Of a DNA stretch of 38,217 nt, positions 30,321 to 32,327 are shown one piece after another. Positions within the stretch are counted from its first letter, which is position 1, and each line of letters opens with the position of its first letter. The position numbers and the translations under genes were made by a program. The notes below the pieces were generated by a model. The model was not told the DNA's origin. It ran no database searches and saw nothing but the letters and a program-made list of their open reading frames with translations. The DNA is from an uncultured Rhodospirillales bacterium (GTDB lineage: Bacteria > Pseudomonadota > Alphaproteobacteria > Acetobacterales > Acetobacteraceae), in contig CAMFLK010000008.1 of NCBI GenBank assembly GCA_945957135.1, forward strand, positions 1-38,217, given 5' to 3'.

Positions 30321-30770
30321 AGCGGCTACCCGTCTGTCGTCGGGCCGGCTCCTTCGCGTTTCTTTGTTCGGCTGAAAGGGGCCGTTTCTTTGCCCCGGCC
30401 TGAAAATCGCAAGGCGTCGCGCGCAGGCGGCGTCAAGGCTCTTGAGCGAAGCGCGCCTTGACGCTGTCGAGCACGGCGCCATCCTCGAATATGGCGGGCC
30501 ACCCGACAACGGCCATTGGCTATATCCCCGCCGACGCCAAGATCAGTGGTGCCGGGTGAGGGGAACGCCCTGTCACCGAGGAAACGGCGGATTTCTGCGG
30601 GTTTTTCGAGTCCCGTGTTGCTGCGTGTGTATCTCTTGGGTGAGCCCTTCGTCAACGCGGGAAGGCGTTGCGGAGACGGCAACATACCTCCTATTGTCGC
30701 ACTATCGTGTTGATCCAGAAATCAAGTATAACTCTATGGTGGCGAAGCCGGAAATTCTGAAAGTAATTGC
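30321..30770. other. 450-bp segment without a convincing gene, holding the island boundary
   Basis: The first part (to about 30546) is high-GC and contains a 10-bp perfect inverted repeat: GCGTCAAGGC (30430-30439) with GCCTTGACGC (30455-30464). This could end the fliK-flgD transcript, but no T-run follows. At 30547-30564 the tRNA-Thr 3' end is repeated. Beyond that the DNA becomes A/T-richer and carries TGTGTATC at 30626-30633. The longest frames have no recognisable domain. Confidence 0.6.
30547..30564 (-). other. distal att-like repeat of the tRNA-Thr 3' end
   Basis: TGGTGCCGGGTGAGGGGA is identical over 18 bases to 32253-32270, the CCA end and T-arm side of tRNA-Thr, in the same orientation. 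Two of the next three bases also match. A direct repeat of a tRNA 3' end at the far edge of an A/T-richer segment with an integrase gene is the usual mark of site-specific integration. Confidence 0.8.
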
Positions 30771-31454
30771 ATGGCTAAGATGGTTATCTATGCGGCACCC
30801 GCTCATCTCTATCGATACCGCCCTCTTGGGACCAAGATCGAGCAAGAGGTCGACGCATTGGTTGGCCAGTATATCCACTGCTCCGGCTTCTCTTCTATGA
30901 ACGATCCAATGGAAGGTGCGCACAGGATTTCACAGCGCCTGCGCGATAAGCAAAGCAATGGTAAGCAGAGTTCAAAAATCAAAGAAGAGATGGAGGCAGT
31001 GGGGATAGCCTCAATGTCGGAGGTCTACGACCACGAGCCTATGTGGGCACACTACGCAGCGCGATTTACCGGCATGTGTGTGGAATACAATACGAGGAGG
31101 TTTTTAAGGGGGCTTCCTGAGGATGTGGCCCTGACACGGATCATGTATTCTGAGCAGGCTCCGACGCTTCTGGACGACGGTAGATTGGAGGCGGACAGGG
31201 TGCGCGGTTGCCTTTCCACCAAGTCGGTGCGTTGGGCAAGCGAACGCGAGTGGCGGCTCTTTCTGACCGCACCTGGCCATGCACGTTATGGTGGGGGAAA
31301 TGTGGTCACCAGAATCTACTTAGGATCGAGAGTCTCCCGGAAGGACGAGCAACGCCTAACCAGCGTCGGAGAGCAATTAGACATACCTGTGTCCAAGATG
31401 ACTATAGAGTCCTATTCACTAAGTTTTGACCCGGCGAAACCCCGGGTAAAGTAG
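30771..31454 (+). CDS. DUF2971 family protein
   Basis: A 227-aa protein of unknown function. DUF2971 landmarks are LYRYRPL (13-19), FSSMNDPMEG (40-49), EPMWAHYAARFTGMCVEYN (89-107) and K151 followed by WASEREWRLF (155-164). The family is scattered among mobile elements and defence-type loci; no biochemical role is firmly known. The gene uses more A/T-rich codons (AGG, ATA, TTA, AGA) than its neighbours. It is the only intact payload gene between the att-like repeats. No clear ribosome-binding site precedes ATG 30771, and ATG 30780 (MVIYAAP) is also possible. A TATAAC at 30727 could be a -10. Confidence 0.75.
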   Translation: MAKMVIYAAPAHLYRYRPLGTKIEQEVDALVGQYIHCSGFSSMNDPMEGAHRISQRLRDKQSNGKQSSKIKEEMEAVGIASMSEVYDHEPMWAHYAARFTGMCVEYNTRRFLRGLPEDVALTRIMYSEQAPTLLDDGRLEADRVRGCLSTKSVRWASEREWRLFLTAPGHARYGGGNVVTRIYLGSRVSRKDEQRLTSVGEQLDIPVSKMTIESYSLSFDPAKPRVK

Positions 31455-31536
31455 TGCGCGTGTTGGTGCCCCGATGGCTTTGGGGAAATTTCTCCGTCCG
31501 TCCGAAAGGCCGGGGGACGAACAACAACAGCAACCT

Positions 31537-32163
31537 TTAGCCTACCCCCTCCGAAAAGGGGTCCCAAAAAGATATTCGGGCCTGGCGCGGCGTTGGCGTG
31601 GCGCAGTCGGCGAGCTGGCGCGGAGATGACGGGCCGAGCCGTCGAGACGGTTCGCGCAGACGTGGCGGGGCGACCAACACCGGGAACGTCTCGGGGACTA
31701 TCGCAACGTCCGCCAGCTTGACCGCTTCGGCGGCGTGATGCTCAACGCGCGCCATTATCCAGGCGAGCCGCTCGGGGGTTCTTTCTTCCGGCAGCATCAT
31801 GAGGTCAAATGCGTCGCTCGCATGTCCCGGCGCTGCGTCGCCAATATCGAGCGGCGCCCCTCCGGCAATCCATGCCGCCCATCGCGCGGTCATCTCTGCG
31901 GCCAGCACGTCCGTAACCGCAACCGCGTTGGCCCGCTTGGCGGCCTCCCTAAAAGCGGCCTCTGCGCGTGCCTTCGCTGCGGGGAACAGCCGACGAGCTT
32001 CGGCCGGGTCCTTCGTTCCGAGAGTCTCGCGCCACTCAGTCAGAGGCTTCGGATTGCCCGGCTTGAAAACCTGTCCATGCACCGCCGCAGGTATGCGGAC
32101 CCGACAGTAATAGACCTCCGTCTTGGGATGCTTCGCGGGCCTCGGCATGGGCAGGGCGATCAT
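31537..32163 (-). pseudogene. truncated tyrosine-type integrase (N-terminal part only)
   Basis: The 208-aa frame begins MPRPAKHPKTEVYYCRVRIPAAVHGQV (after a possible five-residue leader) and continues LGTKDPAEARRLFPAAKARAEAAFREA. This is the N-terminal arm-binding (DUF6538-like) region of phage-type integrases. The core-binding and catalytic domains with R-H-R-Y are absent; after about residue 160 the sequence is proline/arginine-rich and then stops. It starts 90 bases from tRNA-Thr and points away from it, as integrases often do. It is unlikely to recombine DNA but could still bind arm sites. ATG 32148 is an alternative start. Confidence 0.7.
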
Positions 32164-32166
32164 CGC

Positions 32167-32187
32167 TGTGTATCACCTCTGTGTATC
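32167..32187. repeat. tandem TGTGTATC motifs, candidate integrase arm sites
   Basis: TGTGTATC occurs at 32167-32174 and 32180-32187, 13 bp apart, just upstream of the integrase frame. A third copy is at 30626-30633 near the opposite end of the island. Short direct repeats inside both ends are what arm-type binding sites look like. Confidence 0.45.
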
Positions 32188-32252
32188 TCCAGAGGATCGA
32201 AAAGCCCAGTCCTACCGCCAAACGTTTGACAAACCGCCATGTTCGGCGCGGC

Positions 32253-32327
32253 TGGTGCCGGGTGAGGGGATCGAACCCCCGACCTTCGGTTTACAAAACC
32301 GCTGCACTACCGCTGTGCTAACCCGGC
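32253..32327 (-). tRNA. tRNA-Thr (anticodon TGT)
   Basis: The minus strand folds as a tRNA: acceptor GCCGGGT pairs with ACCCGGC, the T-loop is GGTTCGATCC, the anticodon loop is TTTGTAA with TGT, and CCA is encoded. Its 3' end (32253-32270) is duplicated at 30547 and serves as the apparent integration site of the mini-island lying on that side. Confidence 0.93.

What the first reader, a model, noticed from the sequence alone, without database searches (positions are those of the whole stretch)
30547..32327. Degenerate 1.7-kb mini-island at the 3' end of tRNA-Thr
An 18-nt piece of the tRNA-Thr 3' end recurs in direct orientation 1.7 kb away on the side expected for insertion into the tRNA end. 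The enclosed DNA is visibly A/T-richer and contains an integrase N-terminus next to the tRNA. This is a strong case for a site-specifically integrated element reduced to one payload gene.
Basis: partly seen in the sequence, partly recalled or inferred. Interest (0 to 1): 0.7.

Follow-up and report, generated by a model that had tools for sequence, protein, structure and literature searches.

The report
Dead mobile-island remnant at tRNA-Thr
A 1.7-kb leftover of a mobile DNA island sits in the end of a bacterial threonine tRNA gene, its integrase cut off but its one passenger gene intact; that passenger is an unstudied suspected anti-phage protein whose predicted shape resembles enzymes that attach ADP-ribose to DNA or process RNA.

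Summary
The finding holds. The tRNA-Thr(TGT) 3' end (18 nt) recurs in direct orientation at 30547-30564; these are its only two copies in the 4.4-Mb genome. The enclosed DNA is 58.6% GC (rest of window 69.5%), dropping sharply at the distal repeat. Beside the tRNA lies a DUF6538 integrase N-terminus; homology stops near 31660, so core-binding and catalytic domains are gone. New evidence: 15 relatives of this fragment in 13 other genomes of the family lie beside tRNA-Thr in 11 cases. Full-length ones head 5.4-13.6-kb islands bounded by tRNA-end repeats, one at the same tRNA-Thr/degP site; seven relatives have tRNA-Thr by degP without integrase. No relative joins flgD to this tRNA, so the strict empty site was not seen. 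The payload is an intact DUF2971 / PADLOC PDC-S31 gene, common in viral contigs, rare in this family, unstudied in the papers held. Its confident predicted structure (pLDDT 90.8) best matches ADP-ribosyltransferase-fold proteins (Tpt1, DarT), with an invariant E-x-E. A new member of a known kind; the ART-like payload is the interesting part.

The parts
30547..30567 (.). distal att-like copy of the tRNA-Thr 3' end (18 nt exact, 20/21)
30771..31454 (+). intact payload gene, 227 aa, DUF2971 (PF11185) / PADLOC PDC-S31, predicted ADP-ribosyltransferase-like fold
31455..31660 (.). spacer where integrase homology has ended; probable deletion joint near 31660
31661..32163 (-). N-terminal ~168 residues of a DUF6538 tyrosine integrase; the open frame runs on to 31537 without homology
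32253..32270 (.). proximal att copy inside the tRNA-Thr 3' end
32253..32327 (-). complete tRNA-Thr(TGT) with encoded CCA, the integration target
32505..34007 (+). degP-like protease gene, the conserved neighbour on the tRNA 5' side (reference point for synteny)
29631..30320 (+). flgD, neighbour beyond the distal repeat (outside the element)

Best explanation
This is the remnant of an integrative genomic island. A tyrosine integrase with a DUF6538 N-terminal domain inserted the island into the 3' end of tRNA-Thr(TGT), keeping the tRNA intact and leaving a copy of its 3' end at the far boundary (inferred from anatomy and relatives). A later deletion removed the integrase's core-binding and catalytic domains and whatever lay between them and the payload (the absence is shown; the event is inferred). 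No other DUF6538 integrase was found in the genome, so the remnant is very probably immobile. The surviving payload is a single intact DUF2971 / PDC-S31 gene. Most likely it was kept as a stand-alone phage-defence or exclusion gene whose product has an ADP-ribosyltransferase fold and modifies a nucleic acid or other target during infection (inferred, about 0.4). The confidence below is for the island remnant, not for the payload's role.
For: Repeat and its uniqueness. Integrase domain and truncation. Relatives beside tRNA-Thr: 11 of 15 matches, 6 TGT and 5 GGT; two more beside tRNA-Glu and tRNA-Phe. Their islands end in tRNA-end repeats: TGT type 18 nt at 8.5 kb (L076), 15 nt at 2.1 kb (L087), 14 nt at 13.6 kb (L074); GGT type 26-28 nt at 5.4-7.9 kb (L081, L083, L084); tRNA-Glu 19 nt at 6.4 kb (L082). 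Same-site island in G057. Single DUF6538 in genome. Foreign composition: third-position GC 60.4% in DUF2971 against 91.7% and 94.4% in flgD and degP. Payload families, mobile contexts, 229 viral-contig relatives, fold, invariant residues all kept.
Against: No flgD|tRNA-Thr empty junction seen, and the gene 3' of the tRNA is different in every relative, so the boundary rests on the repeat and the composition step. None of the related islands carries DUF2971, so the link between integrase and payload is by position only. No sigma-70-like promoter was found. The ART fold rests on a prediction with middling matches (Foldseek E 1.9e-3, Z 8.5 and 7.4), and no function was tested.
Confidence: 0.9

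Rival explanations
1. Two events: an old integrase remnant at the tRNA, and a DUF2971 gene that arrived separately (for example by illegitimate recombination or with another element) and happens to lie between the repeats.
For: The two parts differ in composition: int fragment 66.0% GC, DUF2971 53.8%. No related island carries DUF2971. The int frame loses homology abruptly near 31660.
Against: The distal repeat lies just outside the DUF2971 gene, and the GC step coincides with it, as expected if both share one element. Mosaic composition is common in islands (established knowledge).
Confidence: 0.25
2. The 18-nt repeat is chance and the segment is just a diverged intergenic region with an integrase fragment.
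For: Exact repeats of this length within 12 kb occur at about 0.1% of random window positions.
Against: Only two copies in 4.4 Mb, placed exactly at the tRNA 3' end, with a fragment of a tRNA-Thr-associated integrase between them and matching anatomy in relatives.
Confidence: 0.02
3. Assembly chimera: the low-GC DUF2971 segment was misjoined into this draft contig.
For: The genome is a 422-contig draft, and flgD next to tRNA-Thr is seen in no relative.
Against: The tRNA repeat, the composition step and the integrase form one coherent element; a random misjoin would not place a tRNA-end copy at the boundary.
Confidence: 0.04

Closest known systems
tRNA-targeted genomic islands with tyrosine integrases, here the DUF6538-integrase islands in tRNA-Thr (L074, L076, L081, L083, L084)
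   Same: integrase reading away from the tRNA 3' end within about 100 bp, tRNA 3' end duplicated at the far boundary, lower GC than the flanks
   Different: only 1.7 kb, integrase lacks core-binding and catalytic domains, one payload gene
Mini-island at tRNA-Thr(TGT) in G070 (L087)
   Same: integrase N-terminal fragment beside tRNA-Thr(TGT), 15-nt repeat 2.1 kb away
   Different: no DUF2971 gene; not next to degP
DUF2971 (PF11185) / PADLOC PDC-S31
   Same: above the Pfam cut-off; PDC-S31 profile covers residues 12-220; all invariant residues present
   Different: found alone in a dead island rather than in a prophage or plasmid
ADP-ribosyltransferase-fold proteins DarT and Tpt1
   Same: best fold matches of the predicted payload structure; an invariant E-x-E with its second E opening a strand, as in many ARTs
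   Different: no detectable sequence similarity, no antitoxin-like gene beside it in the element, activity untested

Membership tests
tRNA-targeted integrative genomic island (tyrosine integrase type) | tRNA 3' end duplicated in direct orientation at the far boundary | tested here: met
   18 nt exact, unique in the genome
tRNA-targeted integrative genomic island (tyrosine integrase type) | integrase gene next to the tRNA, of a family that uses this tRNA | tested here: met
   DUF6538 N-terminus beside the tRNA; 11 of 15 related integrases lie beside tRNA-Thr
tRNA-targeted integrative genomic island (tyrosine integrase type) | complete integrase with catalytic domain (needed for a living element) | tested here: not met
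   homology ends near residue 165-168; no catalytic domain found in any frame. Hence filed as a remnant, not a living island
tRNA-targeted integrative genomic island (tyrosine integrase type) | occupied and unoccupied sites among relatives | tested here: inconclusive
   tRNA-Thr/degP sites without integrase in seven relatives and with a 13.6-kb island in one, but the 3' neighbour always differs and flgD|tRNA was not seen
DUF2971 (PF11185) / PDC-S31 | profile score above the cut-off and full-length match | tested here: met
   28 bits vs cut-off 22; PDC-S31 134.5 bits, residues 12-220
DUF2971 (PF11185) / PDC-S31 | anti-phage activity | not testable with these tools
   PDC means phage-defence candidate; no study found
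ADP-ribosyltransferase superfamily | ART fold | tested here: inconclusive
   pLDDT 90.8; Foldseek ranks 1-5 all DarT or Tpt1 (E 1.9e-3 to 2.7e-2, prob 0.96-0.98); VIA Z 8.5 (7yw4, 112 aligned, 3.1 A), 7.4 (7omw, 133 aligned, 3.7 A)
ADP-ribosyltransferase superfamily | catalytic glutamate at the ART position | tested here: inconclusive
   E158 and E160 invariant in 52 sequences, E160 starts a strand; residue-level superposition on DarT's glutamate (E152/E160) was not computed
ADP-ribosyltransferase superfamily | NAD+-dependent ADP-ribose transfer | not testable with these tools
   needs an enzyme assay

The most novel reading that the evidence does not exclude
DUF2971 / PDC-S31 is an unrecognised family of single-gene, prophage- and island-borne ADP-ribosyltransferases that stop phages by modifying nucleic acid without a dedicated antitoxin.
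Probability: 0.3. Interest if true: 0.65.

Novelty: new member of a known kind. Interest (0 to 1): 0.38.

Why it matters
The island itself is ordinary biology: a tRNA hotspot, a dead integrase and a retained cargo gene. It shows that DUF6538 integrases of this bacterial family use tRNA-Thr (TGT and GGT) as a hotspot whose cargo includes a restriction-modification set and satellite-like genes. The payload points to a testable function for DUF2971, a widespread family that only one paper in the library mentions, once.

Tried and rejected
Idea that the window's T-loop (TTCGATCCCC) was brought in by the element, because four other integrase-bearing tRNA-Thr genes have it and the first integrase-free relatives do not: rejected, it or a one-mismatch variant occurs in 85 of 397 genomes, mostly without this integrase. 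Idea that flgD|tRNA-Thr is the ancestral order: no relative shows it, and the genes 3' of flgD and of the tRNA differ from genome to genome. Shared cargo with related islands: only the integrase matches convincingly. Sequence search of solved structures for DUF2971: no real match. The payload has no phage-record match and the integrase fragment no plasmid match. No RNA family besides the tRNA in the segment. A search for papers on DUF6538 gave none.

Full report
What is there. The window is a whole contig (G000:C8) of a 422-contig, 97%-complete genome of a family that also holds Limobrevibacterium gyesilva (G066 and L034 are the same contig by length and position), so it is probably Acetobacteraceae. 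ARAGORN and Rfam place tRNA-Thr(TGT) at 32253-32327, minus strand. The sequence TGGTGCCGGGTGAGGGGA, the tRNA's 3' end with CCA read on the plus strand, occurs at 32253-32270 and 30547-30564, extending to 21 nt with one mismatch. With one mismatch allowed these are the only copies in 4.4 Mb. GC falls from 64.6% to 52.4% at the distal copy. Third-position GC is 60.4% in the payload gene against 91.7% in flgD and 94.4% in degP.

The integrase. The minus-strand frame 31537-32163 matches Pfam DUF6538 (E 2.4e-10) and is the only DUF6538 hit in the genome. A search of 397 family genomes with its first 165 residues found 15 matches in 13 other genomes. Eleven lie beside tRNA-Thr (six TGT, five GGT), one beside tRNA-Glu and one beside tRNA-Phe; two have no tRNA near. 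The distance from the tRNA end to the matched start is about 77-119 bp. Eleven of these integrase frames are 519-566 codons long (stop to stop). Three of them, scanned with Pfam, have DUF6538 in front and a Phage_integrase match behind; two of these matches are under the curated cut-off and one just over it. Against them the window's protein stops being similar at residue 165-168 (window about 31660), and no catalytic-domain remnant appears in any frame. Other TGT-type loci also carry short integrase frames (165, 214 and 247 codons), so decay at this site is not unique.

The islands. Relatives with a full integrase end in a repeat of their tRNA's 3' end: 18 nt after 8.5 kb (L076), 14 nt after 13.6 kb (L074), 26-28 nt after 5.4-7.9 kb for the GGT type (L081, L083, L084), and 19 nt after 6.4 kb at tRNA-Glu (L082). 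For L075, L079, L080 and L086 no repeat was found in the DNA held. The window's 18 nt fits the TGT type. L074 (genome G057) sits at the same place as the window's remnant: degP, tRNA-Thr(TGT), integrase. In seven other relatives the tRNA-Thr lies by degP without the integrase, with a different 3' neighbour each time. Cargo elsewhere includes an Eco29kI-like restriction enzyme with a cytosine methylase and Vsr (L083) and primase-polymerase plus terminase genes (L074). These islands look like defence islands and phage satellites, which is inference.

The payload. P0001 (227 aa) passes Pfam DUF2971 and matches PADLOC PDC-S31 over residues 12-220. PDC stands for phage-defence candidate (PMC11514479). 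The library holds one paper that mentions DUF2971, once, and none for PDC-S31. Relatives are rare in this family (7 of 397 genomes including the window's). They occur on plasmids, for example with 54% identity on a Sphingobium conjugative plasmid and on a Roseomonas plasmid beside a recombinase and a BglII-type restriction enzyme, and in 229 stretches of viral contigs. Fifty-one of these viral relatives and P0001 all match PDC-S31 and share N44, D45, W92, Y95, Y126, K151, W155, E158, E160 and R162. AlphaFold gives pLDDT 90.8. Foldseek's five best solved structures are DarT (four) and Tpt1; VIA-align ranks Tpt1 (Z 8.5) and DarT (7.4) first, with further ART-fold proteins down the list. ARTs share a catalytic glutamate (E152/E160 in DarT; PMC11543638), and the invariant E158-x-E160 lies where such a motif is expected by strand order. 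This is suggestive, not shown, since no residue-level superposition was made. ART enzymes in phage defence are known, such as DarTG (PMC11543638) and CmdTAC (PMC11618068).

Verdict. What is shown: repeat, composition step, integrase fragment, its family's tRNA-Thr preference, and an island at the orthologous site. What is inferred: the deletion, immobility, and the payload's role. What is missing: an empty flgD|tRNA site from a close relative.

Noticed in passing
L087 (G070:C1, tRNA-Thr(TGT) at 9559-9633 minus): A second mini-island: integrase fragment beside tRNA-Thr(TGT), 15-nt repeat 2.1 kb away, no DUF2971.
   Followed up: partly
L083 1746-9690 (G307): 7.9-kb tRNA-Thr(GGT) island carrying a cytosine methylase, Vsr and an Eco29kI-type restriction enzyme.
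   Followed up: partly
L074 (G057), island 3' of the tRNA-Thr: 13.6-kb island with primase-polymerase, terminase large subunit and SocA/Panacea genes; looks like a phage satellite.
   Followed up: partly
L076:11318-11875 and L084:12394-12957: Serine-resolvase-like genes with very similar starts lie in two islands of the same integrase family (L081 also has a resolvase-domain gene).
   Followed up: no
window 15501-16000: GC dip to 56% in a contig otherwise mostly 63-79% GC; not examined.
   Followed up: no
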